From Candidatus Cloacimonadota bacterium (GTDB lineage: Bacteria; Cloacimonadota; Cloacimonadia; Cloacimonadales; JAIOQZ01), in contig JAIOQZ010000032.1 in NCBI GenBank assembly GCA_021108395.1, positions 62,001-126,000 on the forward strand: a stretch of DNA of 64,000 nucleotides. Direction: 5' to 3'. Every line of letters begins with the position of its first letter. The stretch's first letter is position 1. The notes beneath the pieces were generated by a model. The model did not search any database, was not told where the DNA came from, and saw only the letters and a program-made list of their open reading frames with translations. Shown in pieces: positions 49,377 through 62,009 of the stretch. The translations under genes were made by a program, and so were the position numbers.

Positions 49377-52300
49377 GTGAGTATGCCTGAGGACAGCCCC
49401 ACCAGGAACAGGCAGGAGCAAGGCGGCACCAGGCTGCGCAGCAACCGCCACGCTCTCCCCGACCTCGCCCCGAACACCCTCCTGAACGATCGCTACGAGA
49501 TTATCGAGCGCATCGGCGGGGGCGCCTATGCCGCCGTTTACCTGGCGTGGGATCACAAGCTGGAGATGCAGAAGGCGCTCAAGGTGTACCCCGAGGGGCT
49601 GCCGTCTTCCGAACGTGACGCCCTGCGCGAAGAAGCCAGGGTGCAGGCGCGGCTCAATCATCCGTCCGTGGCGCGGCTTTTCGATTTCGACGACACAGGG
49701 TTCTATCCGCTGCTCGATATGGAATATGTGGAAGGCGAAAACCTGTGCCAGGCGCTGGAGCATCGGCGGTTCTCGCGGCGACGCGCCCTGCGAATGGGCT
49801 TACAGATAGCCGAGGGGTTGCACGCCGCACATGCCGAGGAGATCATCCATCGTGACATCAAACCCGCAAATGTGCTGCTGGGTCCCAAGGGCCGCGTCTG
49901 TCTCACCGACTTCGGCATCGCCGATGACCTGCGCCGAGGTACGGCCACGCCGGCCAGCATCGGCACAGACGCATACATGGCGCCTGAGGTGATCGAGGGG
50001 TTCCCGCCCGATGCCCTCGCCGACATCTTCGCGTTCGGGGTCACTTTCTATGAAACGCTCTACGGCAAACACCCATTCCCCGAAGATGAAGCAGGCCACC
50101 GCGTTTACAGCCTGCCACCGCAACTTATAAGCAGCCGCAAGCCCGAAGACCGCGTGTTGCGCCTATGCCTGTCACCCGCGCCGGAGCAGCGCTACGAGTC
50201 ATCCGCCGAGTTGGTCGCCGATCTGCGCGAGGTGCATGCCCGGGCAGAAAAGACCCCCATGCGAACGCTTGTTCACACCGTCTATATGATTAACCCGCTG
50301 CGCTATGTTCCTCAGGATATCCGCAAGGAAATACGGGCGCTGCTGGCGCTGCTGATATTGCTGGGGGTCATTGCCCCGCTCTATATGCGCTCTGTGCAGC
50401 GTGAAGCACTACCGGAACGGGAAATCACCTTCGAGAACGCGCCGTTGGCCGTGTTTGTCAACCTGGGACGCCGCAACCCGGCGCGTCTTGCCGACCTGCA
50501 ATCCGGCGACCACCTTCAGTTCCGCGATTTCTACGGTAATCACATATTCGACTATATCTATCAGGGCGAGAGTCCCTTCCATCTCAGACTCGCGTCCGAC
50601 AGTGTCTTCATCGGCGGAAAGTTGGTGGGACGCCACATTCGCTCCCGCGATGACCTGCCGCTCGAACCGGGGCTCGCTTATGTGGCCACCGATATTTCGT
50701 TGAGCGCAGAGGATTGGGACGGGCAGGATTATCCACATCTCGCCATACATCTGGGACACATGGTACCCAGCCGCGCCTGGGACGGCCTCCCTCCGCAGAC
50801 CGCCTTTCTCAACATCAGCGGCAATCGCACCCTGAGCAGCTTGTCGGGGATAGGCCGCCTGCAAAGCCTTCGCGGCGTTGACGCCTCCCGCATCAACGGT
50901 CTGATTCCTCAGGGGCTAGAGGACAACGACAGCCTGCGTCTGCTCGACGTGTCCGGTACGCGGCTGCATTCTTCGCAACTGCTGCTGCAACTCGGCCAGC
51001 TTCAGCATCTCGACATATCGAACAATCGACTCGGCGGACTGGCTGGGCTGTCCAACCTGAAAGAACTGCGGAGCCTGGCTATCAACAGTAACCGTGGCGA
51101 GTTGCACTCTGTCGAGCCGCTCTTCAACCTACCGAATCTGGTGTCGATTTCGCGCACAGGCACGCAGCTTGCCGACTCTGCGCAGGAGCGGCGTCTCGAT
51201 GATCTCGAAAAGCAGCTCGAAGCTTTAAACCCGACGGGGCGACGCACGGTGGAGAGACGGATATACCGAAAGCGCAGCAATATCGACAAATTCGTCTATG
51301 GGCTGGCTACCGTGTTGCTGCTGGCTGTGCTTTTTCTTCTGGGGCGCATTTTGATGCTGCGTCTGCCTCGTCCCAGCAAGGAGCAGGAGGCAATCGAACA
51401 CGCCGGTTTGGGCAAAGAAATCAAGGCCATCGGCAAACTGCTGAGTCAGGACAACATATCCAGTCCACCCGGAGAAAACGCTGCCGAAGCTATCCGTGAC
51501 CTCCAACTCGAACACCCGCATCATCCCGAATTGCAACGCGCCCAGGATAAACTCGTGCGCACAGTGGCCGCCAAAGCCCGCCGTCACACTCGTCAGGGCG
51601 AGATAGAACCGGCCTGGCTGGCAGCCCAGGAAGCCGCCGCCTTTCTTGACGACAGCCGCCTGCATGTGCTCGAACGCCGTATGCGCGGCAAGCTCGAACT
51701 GAACGATGACCTGTCCTATGTCCGCATCGCCGGTGGCAGCTTTCAGATGGGCGACTTCGCCGAGGGTTCGATGACGACGGCGCTGCCGGTGCACAGGGTC
51801 GAACTGAGCCCCTTTCAGCTCAGTCGCGTCGCCGTGTCCAATGCCCAGTTCTGCCGTTTCCTCAACTCAGTTGGCCGCCACAGCGACGGCCTTGTCGAAT
51901 GGATAAATCTCGGCAGTCCATATTGCCGCGTCCAGCAGCGCGAAGGCCGCTATGTCATCCCCAAGCCATACGGCGCGTTCCCGGTCATCGAGGTGAGCTG
52001 GCATGGCGCTCAGAAGTTCTGTGATTGGAATAAGTGCCGCCTGCCCACCGAGGCAGAGTGGGAATACGCCGCCCGCAGCCTGGGGCGCAAGGCGCTGTAC
52101 TCCGCAGGCAACCGTGCCAGCAAGCGCACCGCCAACTTCCTGCTCGACGCTGACGATGGCCGCTGGCATTCCATCGTACCGGTGCGCTCGTTCAAACCTA
52201 ACCGGCTGGGACTGTACGAGATGTCCGGCAACGTGCTCGAATGGTGCGCCGACTGGTTTGACCCGCAGGCATACGCCGATGATACCACCCTTGACCCGCA

Positions 52301-52439
52301 CGGCCCAGAACAGGGTACGCTCAAGGTGGTGCGCGGTGGCGGCTGGTGCTTCCCGGCACGACGCATGCGCACCTACTACCGAGGCTCGGCCAAGCCCACC
52401 TCGCGCACCAACTTCATCGGCTTCCGCGTGGCGCGGTGA
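49377..52439 (+). CDS. Fusion: Ser/Thr protein kinase - TM - LRR-like region - TM - formylglycine-generating-enzyme/sulfatase-modifying-factor domain
   Basis: Kinase IGGGAYAAVYLAW, ALKVY, HRDIKPANVLL, LTDFGIADDL; TM ALLALLILLGVIAPLYM; LRR-like LLDVSGTRLHSSQLLLQLGQLQHLDISNNRLGGLAGLSNLKELRSLAI; TM; FGE MGDF...WHGAQKFCDWNKCRLPTEAEWEYAAR...NVLEWCADWF...RVVRGGGW-type ending KVVRGGGW...FIGFRVAR. Confidence 0.92.
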   Translation: MSMPEDSPTRNRQEQGGTRLRSNRHALPDLAPNTLLNDRYEIIERIGGGAYAAVYLAWDHKLEMQKALKVYPEGLPSSERDALREEARVQARLNHPSVARLFDFDDTGFYPLLDMEYVEGENLCQALEHRRFSRRRALRMGLQIAEGLHAAHAEEIIHRDIKPANVLLGPKGRVCLTDFGIADDLRRGTATPASIGTDAYMAPEVIEGFPPDALADIFAFGVTFYETLYGKHPFPEDEAGHRVYSLPPQLISSRKPEDRVLRLCLSPAPEQRYESSAELVADLREVHARAEKTPMRTLVHTVYMINPLRYVPQDIRKEIRALLALLILLGVIAPLYMRSVQREALPEREITFENAPLAVFVNLGRRNPARLADLQSGDHLQFRDFYGNHIFDYIYQGESPFHLRLASDSVFIGGKLVGRHIRSRDDLPLEPGLAYVATDISLSAEDWDGQDYPHLAIHLGHMVPSRAWDGLPPQTAFLNISGNRTLSSLSGIGRLQSLRGVDASRINGLIPQGLEDNDSLRLLDVSGTRLHSSQLLLQLGQLQHLDISNNRLGGLAGLSNLKELRSLAINSNRGELHSVEPLFNLPNLVSISRTGTQLADSAQERRLDDLEKQLEALNPTGRRTVERRIYRKRSNIDKFVYGLATVLLLAVLFLLGRILMLRLPRPSKEQEAIEHAGLGKEIKAIGKLLSQDNISSPPGENAAEAIRDLQLEHPHHPELQRAQDKLVRTVAAKARRHTRQGEIEPAWLAAQEAAAFLDDSRLHVLERRMRGKLELNDDLSYVRIAGGSFQMGDFAEGSMTTALPVHRVELSPFQLSRVAVSNAQFCRFLNSVGRHSDGLVEWINLGSPYCRVQQREGRYVIPKPYGAFPVIEVSWHGAQKFCDWNKCRLPTEAEWEYAARSLGRKALYSAGNRASKRTANFLLDADDGRWHSIVPVRSFKPNRLGLYEMSGNVLEWCADWFDPQAYADDTTLDPHGPEQGTLKVVRGGGWCFPARRMRTYYRGSAKPTSRTNFIGFRVAR

Positions 52440-53885: not shown

Positions 53886-54914
53886 TTATTTCTTTGCGAG
53901 CAGGAACTGAATGCGATCCGCGACCTTGTCGAGCGGTTCGACGTAATCGGCGGCGCCCACGTCGATAGCAGCCTTGGGCATTCCCCACACAACCGAGGTC
54001 GCCTCGTCCTGGCAGATGGTATGCGCCTTTGCGTCGTGCATCAGCTTGAGGCCTTCGGCGCCGTCTTTGCCCATACCGGTGAGCACCACGCCCACGGCGT
54101 TGCGACTGGCGAATTCGGCCACTGACTTGAACAGAACATCCACCGCCGGGCGTTGATGTTGAATACGCGGGCCTTTCTTCACGCGGACGAAGTATCTCGC
54201 GCCGTCACGGCGCAGCACCATATGAAAATCTCCGGGGGCGAGCAGTGCTATGCCTGGTCGCAAAGCGTCGCCGTCTTTGGCCTCGCGCACTTCCATGTCA
54301 CAGATACCATTGAGCCGCTCGGCGTAGGCCGCGGTGAACACAGGCGGCATGTGCTGCACGATGACTGTGCCTGGCGTGTTGGATGGCAAACGCACCATCA
54401 CGTTTTTCAGCGCCTCTGTTCCGCCGGTGGACGCACCGATGGCCAATATCTTGTTGGTGGTGGTGATGTGGATGCGCCGAGGCGGTTTGTCGGGTGTGCG
54501 CGGACCAAGCTGGCGTATATTGGCGCGTGCCGCCGAGCGAATCGAGTGCAGCAGCACCGGCTCGATTGACTCGATGGAATAGGCTTCGCTGGGCTTGGGT
54601 ATCACGTTCATAGCACCCAGCTCGAGCGCTTTCATCGAGGTGCGGCAGCCCTTTTTGGTCACGGAACTGATGATGAGGGTGGGGATGGGGAAGTAGTGCA
54701 TCACCTTGGAAAGAAAGGTGATGCCGTCCATGCGCGGCATCTCGATGTCGAGAGTCATAACGTCTGGCTTGAGCTGAACGATTTTGTCACGCGCAACGAA
54801 GGGGTCGGGCGCGGTGGCCACCACCTCCATGTCAGGTTCAGCGGATATCAGCTTGCTCAACGTTTGGCGCACAACGGCGCTGTCGTCAACAATGATGACG
54901 CGAATCTTTTTCAT
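53886..54914 (-). CDS. cheB: Chemotaxis response regulator protein-glutamate methylesterase/deamidase
   Basis: REC IIVDDSAVVRQTLSKL...MTLDIEMPRMDG; AIGASTGGTEAL, VQHMPPVFTAAYAERL, GVVLTGMGKDGAEGL. Confidence 0.97.
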   Translation of the reverse strand: MKKIRVIIVDDSAVVRQTLSKLISAEPDMEVVATAPDPFVARDKIVQLKPDVMTLDIEMPRMDGITFLSKVMHYFPIPTLIISSVTKKGCRTSMKALELGAMNVIPKPSEAYSIESIEPVLLHSIRSAARANIRQLGPRTPDKPPRRIHITTTNKILAIGASTGGTEALKNVMVRLPSNTPGTVIVQHMPPVFTAAYAERLNGICDMEVREAKDGDALRPGIALLAPGDFHMVLRRDGARYFVRVKKGPRIQHQRPAVDVLFKSVAEFASRNAVGVVLTGMGKDGAEGLKLMHDAKAHTICQDEATSVVWGMPKAAIDVGAADYVEPLDKVADRIQFLLAKK

Positions 54915-55330
54915 TTGTGCGCTTTGAAGAATACGGCCAGCGGACGCTCTCGGTAGAAGATCAGGTCTTTCTCGTGAGCGTCGTCGGGCAGAATGCCATC
55001 AAAGCGGGCAGCCCTGGGGAAGGGCAGCAGCCTGTCGTGCTCTGGGTAAACGGCGCCGACGAAGTTTCCCGCCATCATGTTGACAACCTCCTGGAGGCAG
55101 TCCAATATATCCTCTTCGGTTGGCGTCTCTGGTATGCCCAGGAAGTTCTCGGTAATCTCGGTTGCCAGGCTGGCGTTCATCAACAGCGTGGCATCGAACA
55201 GATCATCTTCGATGCGGGTGATATAATCGAACTTCTCTACGATAACGTCGGGAGGCGTTTCTTCTATAAGGAAGAACATTTCCTCGAGGACGTTAGAAAT
55301 CGAATCCCTCAAGCTCTTCTTCATCTCCAT
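54911..55330 (-). CDS. CheX/FliY-like chemotaxis phosphatase-domain protein
   Basis: MEMKKSLRDSISNVLEEMFF...EDILDCLQEVVNMMAGNFVGAV (E..N-like helix). Confidence 0.7.
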   Translation of the reverse strand: MEMKKSLRDSISNVLEEMFFLIEETPPDVIVEKFDYITRIEDDLFDATLLMNASLATEITENFLGIPETPTEEDILDCLQEVVNMMAGNFVGAVYPEHDRLLPFPRAARFDGILPDDAHEKDLIFYRERPLAVFFKAHK

Positions 55331-55718
55331 CGGTAGAATCCTCCAGGTGCAGCAGGGTTGTGAGGCGTTCCTTGATTGTCTCTGGTCGGAACGGTTTGAC
55401 CAGAACTCCAGAGATTTTCCCTTCGAGCGCTTGTTGCAACGCCTCGATACGGGTTTCGGAGGTGATAACGAGGATGGGCGTCTGCGCAAAGACATCGTTC
55501 TTGCGCACCTCCTCGATGAATGTGTAGCCGTCCATCCTGGGCATATTGATGTCCGAGAAGATGATGTCAACCCAATGGTCTTTCAGCACATCGAGAGCTT
55601 CGATGCCGTCGCCGGCCTCATAGAAGGTGGCCTCGCCGATGTGGCACATGCGGATGGTCTTCATGAGCACTTTTCGCAACGATCGGGAATCGTCCACGAT
55701 GAGCAGATTGTATGGCAT
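55293..55718 (-). CDS. cheY: CheY-type response regulator
   Basis: LLIVDDSRSLRKVLMKTI...DIIFSDINMPRMDGYTFIEEVR...LVITSET...GVLVKPF. Confidence 0.93.
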   Translation of the reverse strand: MPYNLLIVDDSRSLRKVLMKTIRMCHIGEATFYEAGDGIEALDVLKDHWVDIIFSDINMPRMDGYTFIEEVRKNDVFAQTPILVITSETRIEALQQALEGKISGVLVKPFRPETIKERLTTLLHLEDSTDGDEEELEGFDF

Positions 55719-55763: not shown

Positions 55764-56603
55764 TTACGCTTTCAGGTTTTCCACCAGGTCGCGGATGCGA
55801 TCGGTGGCTACGGTGATTGTTTCTTCCAGCTCGCGACTCTTGATGTTATATTTCATCAGCAGGCGGGCGTAGCCGGAATAGGCCAGGGCATCTTTCTGAG
55901 ATACCTTGCCGATGAGAAACGAGATGAAGTCGGCCAGGGCGGTCAGGTCAACATATGGGTTGTCAACATGCTCCGGTGACTGGTGATACTTTGCCACATC
56001 GGTGATGGTGCGGCCAAAATTCCATTTCTTGAGGATGGCCGAGCCGACCGCCGGGTGAGTGAACCCGATTATTTTGCGCTCGGCGGTGGTGAAATCGATA
56101 TCTTTATCGCTGATGAGCTGCACGATCTGCTCGAACTCTGCCGACACGTATTGCGACAGGACTATCTTGCCGATGTCGTGCAGCAGGGCGGCGGTGAACA
56201 AAACCGATTCGTCCACTTCGGGGGCATAGCGGCGGAGTTCCACCGCGATGACGGCCACCGAGAGTGAATGCTCCCAGAGTTCGCCCTGATAGAATTCGTA
56301 ACCATCGAGATGCTTATCGAAATACTTCTTGGCGGCGGACATCATGATGATCGAGGTCATCTGGGTCGCGCCAAGAAGGCTCATCGCGGTCTTCAGGTCA
56401 TTGATCTCACGTGTAGTGACAAAGGCGGCCGAGTTCACCACCTTGAGTATGTTGGCGGTGAGAGCGGGATCATAGCGAATCAGCTCGGTCATATCGTTCA
56501 TGCTGAAATCTTCCTGCCTGATGACCGTGAGCGCCTTCTGCGCCACTTTGCTGAACGGCGGCAGGAATTCGATGTCAGCGATGATGTCGGACATTTTAAT
56601 CAT
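55764..56603 (-). CDS. HDOD domain protein
   Basis: LTVIRQEDFSMNDMTELIRYDPALTANILKVVNSAAF...LHDIGKIVLSQYV. Confidence 0.92.
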   Translation of the reverse strand: MIKMSDIIADIEFLPPFSKVAQKALTVIRQEDFSMNDMTELIRYDPALTANILKVVNSAAFVTTREINDLKTAMSLLGATQMTSIIMMSAAKKYFDKHLDGYEFYQGELWEHSLSVAVIAVELRRYAPEVDESVLFTAALLHDIGKIVLSQYVSAEFEQIVQLISDKDIDFTTAERKIIGFTHPAVGSAILKKWNFGRTITDVAKYHQSPEHVDNPYVDLTALADFISFLIGKVSQKDALAYSGYARLLMKYNIKSRELEETITVATDRIRDLVENLKA

Positions 56604-56613
56604 TGGTCCCCCG

Positions 56614-57096
56614 CTAAATCTCGTAGTTTTCCTGGGAGTTGGAAACGAAAACCTTGCCGGTGTCCATGAAAAGCTTCACAGTTCGGCTTTTGGTTCCGCC
56701 AATATCTTCTCCCGTTATCATGATGTTGTTGCGCCACAATATCTTGCGAACTGCAGTGTGGTTGCGCTCGCCGATATTGAAATACCTGTTCTTGTCCATG
56801 ACGTTGCTGCCACCGGCGACCCTGGTCTCAATCCGGTTACGCTTTGCGCCCAGCGCGAACATCTTCTTGAAAAGCATGGGGACAGCGGTGTCAACGTACT
56901 TGAGCGGCACCATGCGATCAGGGTTCTTCTCGATACTGGAATCGGGCAACATGATATGAATCATGCCCCCGATTTTGGCAACGGGGTCGTATAGAACCAG
57001 TGCGATGCACGAACCCAGTGAATAGGTGATGATAGTATCGCTTGGTTTTTGGGACACTTTCATATCGGCAATGTTTACCACAACAAACTTAGACAT
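56614..57096 (-). CDS. cheD: Chemoreceptor glutamine deamidase CheD (catalytic Cys and His retained)
   Basis: TIITYSLGSCIALVLYDPVAKIGGMIHIMLPDSS...VAGGSNVM...IGERNHTAVRKIL...DIGGTKSR. Confidence 0.92.
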   Translation of the reverse strand: MSKFVVVNIADMKVSQKPSDTIITYSLGSCIALVLYDPVAKIGGMIHIMLPDSSIEKNPDRMVPLKYVDTAVPMLFKKMFALGAKRNRIETRVAGGSNVMDKNRYFNIGERNHTAVRKILWRNNIMITGEDIGGTKSRTVKLFMDTGKVFVSNSQENYEI

Positions 57097-57100
57097 AGTT

Positions 57101-57640
57101 TTATCCTGGTTCCCCGGTGGAACGCCCACCGGATTCCGTCTCCTCTTGCTTACTGTAAGGGTACCAGTCTTCCTGGCGCAACTTGTGCACCTTCATGACG
57201 ACATTCTCACCGGTCTCGGAATTGTAAATGAATTTTCTTCCAAGAGGTCCGCCGGTGTCTTCGGAAAGCACCTCAATCTGGTGTTCGTCAAGGATTTCAA
57301 ACGCCACGTTTCTGTTGCGTTCGCCATAGCGATTGCTGTCTGCCACACTGCCGCCGATAACATGCGCCCGCAGATTGTCAGTTTGCGAACCTATGCGGTG
57401 CATACTGCTGATGAGATGGGGCAGCGCCACGTCGCCGGTATTGACAGTGCGATTGCCGGCATAGCTGGAGCGAGGATGTTGAAAGCAGCAGCAACCGGAG
57501 TACCGCCGTGCGTGATCCCACAGAGACACGAATACGCTTGAACCCACCACACCAGACACTATCGTAGAGCTGCGCGGGATAACGAGGTAGCCCGGATTCA
57601 AGTAATACTCCGTTGGTGGCATCGGCTCGGTCATTGTCAT
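57101..57640 (-). CDS. Divergent CheD paralogue lacking canonical catalytic residues
   Basis: TIVSGVVGSSVFVSLWDHARRYSGCCCFQHPRSS...RAHVIGGSVADSNRYGERNRNVAFEILDEHQIEVLSEDTGGPLGRKFIYNSETGE. Confidence 0.85.
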   Translation of the reverse strand: MTMTEPMPPTEYYLNPGYLVIPRSSTIVSGVVGSSVFVSLWDHARRYSGCCCFQHPRSSYAGNRTVNTGDVALPHLISSMHRIGSQTDNLRAHVIGGSVADSNRYGERNRNVAFEILDEHQIEVLSEDTGGPLGRKFIYNSETGENVVMKVHKLRQEDWYPYSKQEETESGGRSTGEPG

Positions 57641-58449
57641 TGCTTTCGGTAGATGGCCGGGGCGATGTACTGTAAGCTGTGCTCCAGGCCATTGAGCGTT
57701 TCTGAGTGGCCGATGAAAAGCGTGCCACCAGGTTTGAGATGTCTCTGCAACCGACTGATGATGCCGTTTTTCACCGGGGTGTCGAAGTAGATCATCACGT
57801 TGCGGCAGACGATGAGATCGAATTTTTTTTGAAAGGGGAAATCTTTGATGAGATTCACCACGCGAAAGCTGACGCGATCGCGCAGTTCCTTTTTTACCCG
57901 CGCATAGCCTTCCGATTTTCCGGCGCCCTTCTGAAAGTACTTGTGTAACCGATGTTTGGGAATCATTTTCAGTTTTTCCATTGTATATACACCGCGTTCG
58001 GCGGTGTTGAGGACGCGGGTGGAAATATCGGAGCCGAGGATTGTGTATGGGCGGCCCTTCAGTATCTCGGCCAGCTCGATGGCCAGGGAATAAGGCTCCT
58101 CGCCGGAGGAGCTGGCGGCGCTCCAGACCTCGACCGTGTCGCCCTCTCCGGCCATCTCGGTGGCCCAGGGGTCACGCAGGTATTCAAAATGCTTTTCTTC
58201 GCGAAAGAAATGCGTGACGTTGGTCGAGATAAGGTTGATGAAGCCGATAAGTTCGGTTTCGCTTTTATCGGCTGTGATGAGGCTGTAATACTCTTTGTAA
58301 CTGTTGATACCGCGTTTGCGCAGAACTTTGTTCACCCTGCCCTGCAAAAGCGATTTCTTTCCCAGGTTGAGGTTGATGCCTGTCCTGTCATAAACAAGAG
58401 TTGCGAATTTTTTGAATTCTCTGTCTGAAAGCGTCAATGCTCCATTCAT
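57637..58449 (-). CDS. cheR: Chemotaxis protein methyltransferase
   Basis: REFKKFATLVYDRTGINLNLGKKSLLQGRV; THFFREEKHFEYL; VEVWSAASSSGEEPYSLAI; FDLIVCRNVMIYFD. Confidence 0.96.
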   Translation of the reverse strand: MNGALTLSDREFKKFATLVYDRTGINLNLGKKSLLQGRVNKVLRKRGINSYKEYYSLITADKSETELIGFINLISTNVTHFFREEKHFEYLRDPWATEMAGEGDTVEVWSAASSSGEEPYSLAIELAEILKGRPYTILGSDISTRVLNTAERGVYTMEKLKMIPKHRLHKYFQKGAGKSEGYARVKKELRDRVSFRVVNLIKDFPFQKKFDLIVCRNVMIYFDTPVKNGIISRLQRHLKPGGTLFIGHSETLNGLEHSLQYIAPAIYRKQ

Positions 58450-58450
58450 A

Positions 58451-60262
58451 TCAGGTTCCTGTTGGCACAAGCGAGCCGATGTCGAGGATGAGGCCCACCG
58501 AGCCATCACCCATGATGGTGGCGCCGGAAACGCCTTTGAGGTTTTTGAATTTTTCGCCTAACGTTTTGATAACGACATCCTGAATGCAGACAAGTTCGTC
58601 CACCTGTAGTCCGAATTCGCGGCTGTCGCCGACGGACACGATGATGAGGATTGTTTCTTCCCATTTATCGCGGGCGTTGTCAATGTGAAAGAGTTTGTGC
58701 AGCTTGGCGATGGGGATGAGGTGGTCGCCCAGGTCGTAGCTTTCTCCATGCCCGGCGATTTTGTTCACATTCGCGCTTTGGGGTTTCAACGTTCGCTTCA
58801 CATTCACTACCGGCAAGATAAAGAGGTCGCCTCCCACACGCACCGTCATGCCCTCGATGATGGCCAGTGTGAGCGGCAGGAGGATGCCGAAAGTGCTGCC
58901 TTCGCCAGCCCTGGAGTCGATCTCGATACGGCCGCCAAGATTCTTTAGCGCCTGAGATACGACGTCCATGCCCACGCCGCGGCCAGAGACGTTTGTAACC
59001 TTTACGGCAGTGGAGAACCCAGCCTCCATGACGAAACTGAAGATTTGCTTGTCTGTGTATTTCTCGTCTTTCTTTGCGAGTCCGCGCTCGACAGCCTTTT
59101 CATATATCCGCTCGCGGTCAAGGCCTTTGCCATCGTCCCTGACGTCAATGACGATGTTGCTGCCTTTGTGGTATGCGTGCAGCGTAATCGTGCCCCTGGC
59201 CGGTTTTCCTGCCGCCTTGCGGGTCTCTGCATCTTCGATGCCGTGGTCGCAGGAGTTGCGAATCATGTGAACAAGCGGATCATAGAGGTTCTCGACGATG
59301 TTTCGGTCGATCTCGGTGTCCTCACCTATTAACACCAGTTCGATTTCCTTGCGCGTTTTCTGAGAATAATCGCGCACCACACGTTTCATCTTGGTGAAGA
59401 TCGCGCCGACTGGAACCATGCGCATGGCCATTGAGGCCGCCTGAAGCTCAGAGACGGTGCGGTTGAGCTGACCCAGCTTCTTGCGGAATTCCTGGTCGAA
59501 TATGCTGTTGACATTGTCGTCTTGGCCAACCAGATTCGAGTTGATGACCAGCTCGCCGACCATATCGATCAAATAGTCCAATTTCTCGGTGCGCACTTTG
59601 ACAATTTTTTCTTTCGTTTTCCTTGCTGTTTCCTGGCGAGTATCATCAAATTCTGTCAGGCTTTCGAGGCTCGTCTCTGGCACGGCGGCTATCGGTGTTT
59701 CGGTGGCCAGGGTGCGCAGGTGCACTATCAATTGGTCAACGCGTTCCTGCGGAATATCTTCGGTGCGGTGTGCGGGGTCCAGTTGCGAGATGATGAATTT
59801 GATCGTGTCGATTGAGGCAAGGACACCCTGGATAATCGTCTCGTCGATTAACAGCTTGTCGTTTCTAACCATATCCAGGAGGCTCTCTGTCTCGTGGCAA
59901 ATTTTGTTGAGCTTCTTGAGGCCCATGAATCCTGAGACGCCCTTGAGCGTGTGGAACGGACGGAACACGTTGTTGATGATCTCTTTGTTGGTTGGCGAGT
60001 TCTCCAGCTCGATCACTTCGGTCTCGAGTTCCTCGATATACTCGTTGGCCTCCTGCAAAAAGTCGAGAAAGATGTCGTCGTCCTCGTCATCCTCGACAGT
60101 CGATTGCAAATCGTCTTCCAGCAGGTCGCTCACATATGACTTCTCGCCCTTGTCGTCATCGGCGAACAGCTCGGCGTCTGTGTCGGGTTCCACCGGAGCC
60201 TGTTCAGTGTTGACATACATGGGTGCCAGTTCTTCAAATGCCTGCTTCTGTATTTCAGACAT
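58451..60262 (-). CDS. cheA: Chemotaxis histidine kinase
   Basis: HPt FRPFHTLKGVSGFMGL; MVGELVINSNLV; LVHMIRNSCDHGIED; DDGKGLDRERI; GRGVGMDVV; C-terminal CheW-like domain. Confidence 0.97.
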   Translation of the reverse strand: MSEIQKQAFEELAPMYVNTEQAPVEPDTDAELFADDDKGEKSYVSDLLEDDLQSTVEDDEDDDIFLDFLQEANEYIEELETEVIELENSPTNKEIINNVFRPFHTLKGVSGFMGLKKLNKICHETESLLDMVRNDKLLIDETIIQGVLASIDTIKFIISQLDPAHRTEDIPQERVDQLIVHLRTLATETPIAAVPETSLESLTEFDDTRQETARKTKEKIVKVRTEKLDYLIDMVGELVINSNLVGQDDNVNSIFDQEFRKKLGQLNRTVSELQAASMAMRMVPVGAIFTKMKRVVRDYSQKTRKEIELVLIGEDTEIDRNIVENLYDPLVHMIRNSCDHGIEDAETRKAAGKPARGTITLHAYHKGSNIVIDVRDDGKGLDRERIYEKAVERGLAKKDEKYTDKQIFSFVMEAGFSTAVKVTNVSGRGVGMDVVSQALKNLGGRIEIDSRAGEGSTFGILLPLTLAIIEGMTVRVGGDLFILPVVNVKRTLKPQSANVNKIAGHGESYDLGDHLIPIAKLHKLFHIDNARDKWEETILIIVSVGDSREFGLQVDELVCIQDVVIKTLGEKFKNLKGVSGATIMGDGSVGLILDIGSLVPTGT

Positions 60263-60575
60263 AAATCCTCGTCTATTCGCTCTGTTGTGAGGCGACGCTT
60301 TCTGCGGAATATTGGTACCTGTCTATCGTGTTGATATAGTAAACCCCAAATCGTAAATGCCAATGAATATCTTCTTTCACAGCGCATTTTGCCATGAATA
60401 ATTTCTCTTGCCACATCTGATGCTCGTCCTCAGTGGATTGAAATCTATTCGTAGCGGGGTGTTGAACAGAAACTTTCGTGAACAACACGAGTACGTTACG
60501 CTGTTGCCGTTATTCCGCCGGTTTCTTGGAACAAAAAATGTATGGTACTATGTCAGCACTCAGCAAGGACAACAA

Positions 60576-62009
60576 GTGAAAACAACAGAGATTTATCCTC
60601 GGCCAGACGATTCTCAGGTTCCTGGGAATCGAATCAGCGCCTGCTGTCACGCATTGCTCGACAACACGCAGGAATGCATCTGGATTCTCGATGAGCTGGG
60701 CAGGTTCCAGTATATGAACAAAACTGCGCGCCAGTTGCTGGGCTATTCCCTCGATCAATGGCTGGGCATCGCATTCACGCAGTTCGTGCCCAAAGACGAG
60801 CACGAAGCTGTGCTGGCCATGCTGCGAGCAGTGCAGCAGGGCGAAACGCGCAGCTTCGAGATGGAGATTGTCGATGACGGTGGCCGCATATGCACCCTGG
60901 CATGCAAGGTCGCGCCCTGGCATGATGGAGACCGGCGCACCGGAGTGATCAATTACGCCATGGACATCACCCCGCAACGGACGGTCGAGCTGGCGCTCGA
61001 ACTGAGTGAAAACCGCTACCGCAGCATCGTTGACGAGGGACGCGAGGTGCATCTGCGCTTCAAGCCTGACGGCACTCTCACGTTTATCAATCAACACTGG
61101 TTCGAGTCGCAGACGCCGGCTCATACCGATATGCTTGGCAACAGCTACCTCGAAATTATTCCCATCGAGCACCGCGAACGAGTGCATCTGCTCACCCAGC
61201 GGCTCAGTCCAGAAGCTCCCCGCGAGACAATAAATGTTCAGCTTACGGGGCAGGATGGGCTGTCGGCCTACTTCACCTGGACGCTTCAGGCCATCTATTC
61301 ACGCATCGAGAGCGTGCCCCGCCTGCTCGAATTCCAGATCATCGGGCGGGACGAGACACCACTGCGCGAAGCCGAGCAGGAGAGCCAGCAGGCCAACGCC
61401 CGTTTGCGCAAGGCCGCCATTCAGACCATTCAGTCACTGTTCATCACTGTCGAGAAGAAAGACCCCTACACCGCCGACCACCAGCGCCGCACCGCCTTTT
61501 TGGCCGCAGAGATCGCCTATGCGCTCGAACTGCCTCGCGAGACTGTGCAGGGCATCTACTTCGGCGCGCTCATTCACGACATCGGCAAACTTTTCATTCC
61601 AGGAGACATCCTCAACCGCCCCGGCCGCATCACCGATATCGAATTCTCGCTCATCAAGACGCATCCGCAGGTGGGCTACGAGATTATCCGCGACATCGAC
61701 CTGCCGTGGAACCTGGGTGATATGATATTGCAACACCACGAGCATCTCGATGGATCGGGTTATCCTAACGGGCTGCACGGCGACCAGATATGCCAGGAAG
61801 CGCGCATCATCACCGTGGCCGATGTGGTGGAATCCATCGCCTCGAACCGGCCATATCGTCCCAAGCTCGAACTCATCAACGCCCTTGACGAAATTACCCG
61901 CTTTCGTGGCAGCTACTACGATCCAGAAATCGTCGATATCTGCCTGCATCTGATTCAGAGCCGTCGCATCAACATCAACCGGATGGAGTCGAACAGCGCC
62001 TTCAATTGA
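60576..62009 (+). CDS. PAS-PAS-HD-GYP protein (putative c-di-GMP phosphodiesterase)
   Basis: Two PAS regions; HD-GYP VEKKDPYTADHQRRTAFLA...LIHDIGKLFIPGDIL...ILQHHEHLDGSGYPNGL; GTG start at 60576 with AAGGA upstream (ORF extends to 60408). Confidence 0.93.
   Translation: MKTTEIYPRPDDSQVPGNRISACCHALLDNTQECIWILDELGRFQYMNKTARQLLGYSLDQWLGIAFTQFVPKDEHEAVLAMLRAVQQGETRSFEMEIVDDGGRICTLACKVAPWHDGDRRTGVINYAMDITPQRTVELALELSENRYRSIVDEGREVHLRFKPDGTLTFINQHWFESQTPAHTDMLGNSYLEIIPIEHRERVHLLTQRLSPEAPRETINVQLTGQDGLSAYFTWTLQAIYSRIESVPRLLEFQIIGRDETPLREAEQESQQANARLRKAAIQTIQSLFITVEKKDPYTADHQRRTAFLAAEIAYALELPRETVQGIYFGALIHDIGKLFIPGDILNRPGRITDIEFSLIKTHPQVGYEIIRDIDLPWNLGDMILQHHEHLDGSGYPNGLHGDQICQEARIITVADVVESIASNRPYRPKLELINALDEITRFRGSYYDPEIVDICLHLIQSRRININRMESNSAFN

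What the first reader, a model, noticed from the sequence alone, without database searches (positions are those of the whole stretch)
57101..57640. CheD paralogue with substitutions at both catalytic positions, adjacent to an intact CheD
The cluster encodes two tandem CheD-family proteins. The downstream one keeps LGSC...GGMIHIMLP. The upstream one reads VGSS...SGCCCFQHP, so by alignment the catalytic Cys is Ser and the catalytic His position is occupied by Cys, in an unusual CCC run. The rest of the fold (HVIGGS, ERNRNVAFEIL, EDTGGPLGRKF) is kept. Inference: a pseudo-deamidase acting as a regulator, for example binding CheX-like phosphatase or the other CheD, or an enzyme with rewired chemistry.
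Basis: partly seen in the sequence, partly recalled or inferred. Interest (0 to 1): 0.62.

Follow-up and report, generated by a model that had tools for sequence, protein, structure and literature searches.

The report
Catalytically dead CheD in tandem pair
Next to a normal copy of the chemotaxis enzyme CheD, this bacterium has a second copy that has lost all three catalytic residues but is conserved in relatives, with two new cysteines and a histidine fixed in the same protein, so it probably works as a binding or regulatory protein rather than as an enzyme.

Summary
ORF 57101-57640 (-) is a CheD-fold protein (Pfam CheD 3.9e-15; AlphaFold model pLDDT 90.8, best PDB match T. maritima CheD 2F9Z). 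All three catalytic positions differ from the intact neighbour CheD1: Thr21 is Ser29, Cys27 is Ser35, His44 is Cys52. It is not a sequencing error. Nine copies in seven genomes of the host's phylum (125 genomes held) form one clade, all with Gly/Ser for Cys and Ser/Cys/Leu/Tyr for His. What is conserved is not the CCC run but its first two cysteines (C50, C51), plus G30, F37, Y47, S48 and H93, all clade-specific. The clade sits inside a larger CheD2 family (tail R..DW[YF]PY) found in Desulfobacterota. There, orphan copies mostly keep Ser-Cys-His. Copies within 5 kb of an intact CheD do not: 0 of 20 keep the triad, against 14 of 20 others. CheD1 is intact in all 24 cases. Shared ancestry means this association is not statistically proven. 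Best reading: a non-catalytic CheD-fold binding regulator of the receptor/CheX/CheD1 module. A remodelled Cys/His (metal or redox) site is possible but untested.

The parts
57101..57640 (-). CheD2: non-catalytic CheD-family protein, 179 aa
   Evidence: Pfam CheD 3.9e-15; AlphaFold model pLDDT 90.8, best PDB match 2f9z_C E 2.8e-12, TM 0.75/0.86
57554..57556 (-). Codon of Ser29, at the position of catalytic Thr21 of T. maritima CheD
   Evidence: alignment to 2F9Z chain C; Y or N in the orthologues
57536..57538 (-). Codon of Ser35, at the position of catalytic Cys27
   Evidence: G in the other eight clade members
57488..57493 (-). Codons of Cys50-Cys51, invariant and specific to this clade
   Evidence: 9 of 9 in the clade; mostly Met/Ile/Val and Asn/Ser/Leu elsewhere
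57485..57487 (-). Codon of Cys52, at the position of catalytic His44; variable in the clade (S, C, L, Y)
57362..57364 (-). Codon of His93, invariant and clade-specific (Gln in other CheD2, mostly Lys in CheD1)
57155..57178 (-). C-terminal motif RQEDWYPY (R155-Y162), hallmark of the wider CheD2 family, absent from CheD1
   Evidence: alignments
56614..57096 (-). CheD1: canonical CheD with intact Thr-Cys-His
   Evidence: Pfam 1.9e-31; 2F9Z E 1.4e-29
57637..58452 (-). cheR, overlaps cheD2 by 4 bases
   Evidence: Pfam CheR 4.5e-57; spacing
58451..60262 (-). cheA
   Evidence: Pfam Hpt, H-kinase_dim, HATPase_c, CheW
55764..56603 (-). HDOD-domain protein
   Evidence: Pfam HDOD 5e-52
55293..55718 (-). 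cheY-like receiver
   Evidence: Pfam Response_reg 7.3e-25
54911..55324 (-). CheX-like phosphatase (start codon approximate)
   Evidence: Pfam CheX 27.7 bits against a cut-off of 27
53886..54914 (-). cheB
   Evidence: Pfam CheB_methylest 5.4e-63

Best explanation
CheD2 is a conserved pseudo-deamidase. It keeps the CheD fold but lacks the Cys-His-Thr triad, so it should not deamidate receptors; the neighbouring CheD1 does that. It most likely works by binding, as B. subtilis CheD largely does: it would bind the receptor signalling domain and/or the CheX-like phosphatase (or CheD1) and so tune CheA activity or CheD1 access in step with CheY-P. Shown here: fold by prediction, loss of the triad in all orthologues, clade-wide conservation, operon membership, intact CheD1 partner. 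Inferred: loss of activity, the binding role, and which partner is bound.
For: All three triad positions changed in 9 of 9 orthologues while the rest of the fold is kept. The clade is strongly supported, 100/99. Tight operon cheA-cheR-cheD2-cheD1-HDOD-cheY-cheX-cheB with overlapping or nearly touching genes; adjacent cheD2-cheD1 in six genomes of the phylum. CheD1 intact in all 24 members of its clade. In the wider CheD2 family, copies within 5 kb of an intact CheD never keep the full triad (0 of 20), others do in 14 of 20. In Desulfobacterota cheX lies directly upstream of cheD2 in many clusters. Precedent: CheD deamidase activity is minor and CheC/receptor binding major in B. subtilis (PMC3513319). 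The genomes with this clade have flagellar FliG and MCPs.
Against: No assay or interaction data. The host has no CheC, and the B. subtilis binding model was worked out for CheC, not CheX. Paired and unpaired status is clustered on the tree: the independent-pairs test had only 3 pairs and no power. With a 10 kb limit, three or so further CheD2 genes in broader che neighbourhoods keep the triad. Three CheD2 genes near an intact CheD keep Cys and His and have only Tyr at the Thr position, so they may still be active.
Confidence: 0.6

Rival explanations
1. CheD2 carries a new active or metal/redox site: C50, C51 and H93 (with residues around the old pocket) bind a metal, or form a redox switch that couples cell redox state to chemotaxis.
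For: C50, C51 and H93 are invariant in nine sequences averaging 46% identity and absent or rare elsewhere, whereas the former His and Thr positions drift. C50-C51 lie in predicted strand 47-53 and H93 in strand 90-96. A relative in the same fold superfamily, YfiH, has a zinc ion coordinated at its active site (PMC7022378), and YfiH structures appear among weak fold matches.
Against: Distances between C50, C51 and H93 are unknown (no coordinates available). About a fifth of all columns are invariant in the clade, so fixation alone is weak evidence of a site. No fourth invariant ligand was identified.
Confidence: 0.18
2. CheD2 forms a heterodimer or competes with CheD1 and acts only as a local modulator of CheD1 activity (pseudoenzyme-enzyme pair).
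For: Genes are 4 bases apart in the window and adjacent in six genomes of the phylum. Another, independently composed tandem pair (L117, L129) also has one intact CheD and one that lost Cys.
Against: In Desulfobacterota cheD1 and cheD2 are usually separated by HDOD, cheY and cheX genes, and CheD2-family members exist as orphans far from CheD1. No known CheD-CheD complex was found in the searches made.
Confidence: 0.15
3. A decaying paralogue without function (relic), or an assembly/sequencing artefact.
For: It evolves faster than CheD1: mean identity 46% in the clade against 64% for CheD1 of the same phylum.
Against: Intact frame in nine copies of seven genomes, 34 invariant columns, conserved operon position, and a second dispersed copy in two genomes.
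Confidence: 0.03

Closest known systems
CheD receptor glutamine deamidase (T. maritima 2F9Z, B. subtilis CheD; Pfam PF03975)
   Same: Predicted fold (TM 0.86 on the target length), conserved structural glycines, G.[RK]N and [DE]D.GG motifs, location in a che operon
   Different: No Thr-Cys-His triad; extra C-terminal R..DW[YF]PY tail; clade-specific C50, C51, H93; no CheC in the host
CheC/CheD/CheY-P adaptation of B. subtilis (PMC3513319)
   Same: A CheD acting mainly by binding rather than by catalysis; a CheC/CheX-family phosphatase in the same system
   Different: B. subtilis CheD is still an active enzyme and single-copy, and its partner is CheC; here catalysis is split off to CheD1 and the phosphatase is CheX-like
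CNF1/YfiH-like cysteine hydrolases (NTAN1, YfiH)
   Same: Same fold superfamily; NTAN1 and YfiH are the next PDB matches
   Different: Weak similarity only; YfiH's zinc site has not been shown here
Wider CheD2 family of Desulfobacterota (described here)
   Same: Same tail, same clade in the tree, often the same operon with CheD1, HDOD, CheY, CheX, CheB
   Different: Many members, mostly orphans, keep Ser-Cys-His; none of those aligned has the Cys50-Cys51 pair or His93

Membership tests
CheD family (PF03975), fold and homology | Pfam gathering score reached | tested here: met
   56.4 bits against 25
CheD family (PF03975), fold and homology | CheD fold | tested here: met
   AlphaFold model pLDDT 90.8; 2f9z_C E 2.8e-12
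CheD glutamine deamidase (enzyme) | Catalytic Cys (Cys27 of T. maritima) | tested here: not met
   Ser35 here, Gly in the other eight clade members
CheD glutamine deamidase (enzyme) | Catalytic His (His44) | tested here: not met
   Cys52 here; S, L or Y in orthologues
CheD glutamine deamidase (enzyme) | Thr21 or Ser equivalent | tested here: inconclusive
   Ser29 in the window copy could serve (NTAN1 has Ser, PMC7022378); Tyr or Asn in all orthologues
CheD glutamine deamidase (enzyme) | Deamidates MCP glutamines | not testable with these tools
   needs a biochemical assay
CheD glutamine deamidase (enzyme) | NCBIfam equivalog cut-off | tested here: not met
   best 63.7 bits against 223; CheD1 also falls short, 135.5 against 240 for its best, so this test does not discriminate
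CheC-binding adaptation-type CheD | CheC present in the genome | tested here: not met
   no PF04509 match in G000; a CheX-like protein is in the operon instead
CheC-binding adaptation-type CheD | Met-Phe at the CheC interface after the GG motif | tested here: not met
   GGSVADSN in CheD2 against GG-x-x-MF reported for CheC-bearing species (PMC3513319)
YfiH-type metal site | Metal bound by Cys/His at the active site | not testable with these tools
   no coordinates and no metal analysis

The most novel reading that the evidence does not exclude
In this phylum one CheD paralogue has traded its deamidase triad for a new Cys50-Cys51-His93 site that binds a metal or responds to redox state, turning a receptor-modifying enzyme into a sensor or switch that feeds cell redox or metal status into chemotactic adaptation.
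Probability: 0.15. Interest if true: 0.75.

Novelty: new variant of a known kind. Interest (0 to 1): 0.48.

Why it matters
CheD has two jobs in the model system, deamidating receptors and binding receptors/CheC, and the B. subtilis work argues that binding matters more. A lineage in which the two jobs look split between an always intact CheD1 and a triad-less CheD2 in one operon is a natural test of that claim. It also means that automatic annotation of such genes as receptor deamidases is probably wrong. No description of catalytically dead CheD paralogues was found in the searched library, which covers open-licence papers only.

Tried and rejected
Sequencing error or pseudogene: rejected, nine intact orthologous copies share the losses. 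His55 in FQHP as a shifted catalytic His: rejected, that position is L, Y or H in orthologues. The CCC run as the key feature: rejected, only the first two Cys are conserved. Strict rule 'CheD2 loses its Cys whenever CheD1 is in the same cluster': too strong, 17 of 20 within 5 kb lost Cys, and with a wider limit several intact ones are included; the independent-pairs test has no power. Search of plasmids for relatives: no match. Direct genome-contig scan with the single sequence gave only two deltaproteobacterial relatives. Geometry of C50/C51/H93 could not be measured because model coordinates are not exposed. Papers on two CheDs: mostly unrelated uses of the abbreviation CHED; Shewanella CheD1/CheD2 belong to two separate che loci.

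Full report
Observation. The window holds a compact minus-strand operon cheA-cheR-cheD2-cheD1-HDOD-cheY-cheX-cheB (60262 down to 53886); most genes overlap or lie within 10 bases, the largest gap being 45 bases. The finding's ORF, 57101-57640, is the first of two CheD genes. Aligned to T. maritima CheD, the catalytic Cys27 and His44 are replaced by Ser35 and Cys52, and Thr21 by Ser29; CheD1, just downstream, has Thr, Cys and His. The triad Cys27/His44/Thr21 is given in PMC7022378, which also notes that Ser stands in for Thr in NTAN1, so Ser29 alone would be tolerable; the Cys and His changes would not, on known chemistry.

Not an error. Searching the host's family, order, class and phylum (125 genomes held) found nine CheD2 copies in seven genomes: one in the operon-type context in each, and a second, dispersed copy in the host (G000:C37, beside ftsZ) and in its family member G001. 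In G060 the che cluster is split over contigs. All nine have Gly or Ser for the catalytic Cys and Ser, Cys, Leu or Tyr for the catalytic His. Their average identity is 46%, so conservation is informative. Thirty-four columns are invariant. Among residues found in this clade but rare in 31 other CheD2 and 12 CheD1 sequences are G30, F37, Y47, S48, C50, C51 and H93.

Fold. The AlphaFold model from a 60-sequence alignment has mean pLDDT 90.8. Foldseek against the PDB gives T. maritima CheD first (E 2.8e-12, TM 0.75/0.86), then NTAN1 and, weakly, YfiH. C50-C52 lie in predicted strand 47-53 and H93 in strand 90-96.

Wider family. A profile of the nine copies finds relatives in Desulfobacterota (phylum of the Eth-SRB2 genome), recognisable by the same C-terminal R..DW[YF]PY tail. 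In a maximum-likelihood tree built without the catalytic columns, CheD1 and CheD2 are separate groups, the nine copies form one clade (100/99) and lie among the 42 CheD2 rows. Many Desulfobacterota CheD2 keep Ser-Cys-His. Others carry Ala, Ser or Gly at the Cys position, and some Tyr or Ser at the His position. The fewest state changes at Cys on that tree is six. CheD1 keeps the triad in all 24 members of its clade.

Context. Scored within 5 kb, 20 CheD2 genes have an intact CheD nearby and none of these has the full triad (17 lost Cys; three keep Cys and His but have Tyr at the Thr position). Of 20 without one, 14 have it; two ambiguous rows (contig edges) were left out. This table is suggestive but not a proof: pairing follows clades, the independent-pairs test had only three pairs, some orphan contigs are short, and in four further loci CheD1 lies 7-9 kb away, three of them with intact CheD2. 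In many Desulfobacterota clusters cheX is directly upstream of cheD2 and cheB directly downstream.

System. The host, 98% complete, has a single MCP, with HAMP and signalling domains, no CheC, and FliG. CheD2-bearing genomes of the phylum all have MCPs and FliG; two relatives without CheD (G002, G013) have neither. So the operon belongs to flagellar chemotaxis, with the CheX-like protein as the likely CheY-P phosphatase. The host's name is not given; proteins with type IX-like C-terminal sorting domains and the small phylum suggest an FCB-group phylum such as Cloacimonadota. That is a guess, not a result.

Mechanism. In B. subtilis CheD works mainly by binding receptors and CheC, the latter strengthened by CheY-P, and its deamidase activity is minor (PMC3513319). 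The most economical reading is that here the two roles are split: CheD1 deamidates, CheD2 binds. Steps shown: loss of triad, kept fold, conservation, operon. Steps inferred: lack of activity, binding role, and the partner. A remodelled Cys/His site remains open, at lower probability. Novelty: a new variant of a known kind, a conserved pseudoenzyme paralogue of CheD.

Noticed in passing
L147:11131-11616 (+) in G000:C37, and L139:3791-4276 (-) in G001: Dispersed second copies of the Cys-Cys CheD2 far from any che gene. In the tree the host's operon copy groups with G001's dispersed copy and vice versa (97/88 and 99/87), as if an ancestral duplication was followed by a swap or differential loss.
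   Followed up: partly
L177:7051-9630 (-): The only MCP found in the host genome, ending in an acidic/aromatic tail (..DDDFKDF) similar to that of the G001 receptor (..EGDFENF), although the host has one canonical CheD and two CheD2 copies.
   Followed up: partly
L100, L107, L110, L113 (Desulfobacterota CheD2): CheD2 proteins in or near che clusters that keep Cys and His but have Tyr at the catalytic Thr/Ser position; activity is unclear.
   Followed up: no
L117 and L129: An independently composed tandem pair: an intact CheD of another clade directly followed by a CheD2 whose Cys is Ala or Ser.
   Followed up: partly
window 49377-52439 (+): One protein joining a Ser/Thr protein kinase domain, leucine-rich repeats and a C-terminal FGE-sulfatase (formylglycine-generating-like) domain.
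   Followed up: no
window 60408-62009 (+): PAS plus HD-GYP-like protein divergently transcribed from cheA.
   Followed up: no
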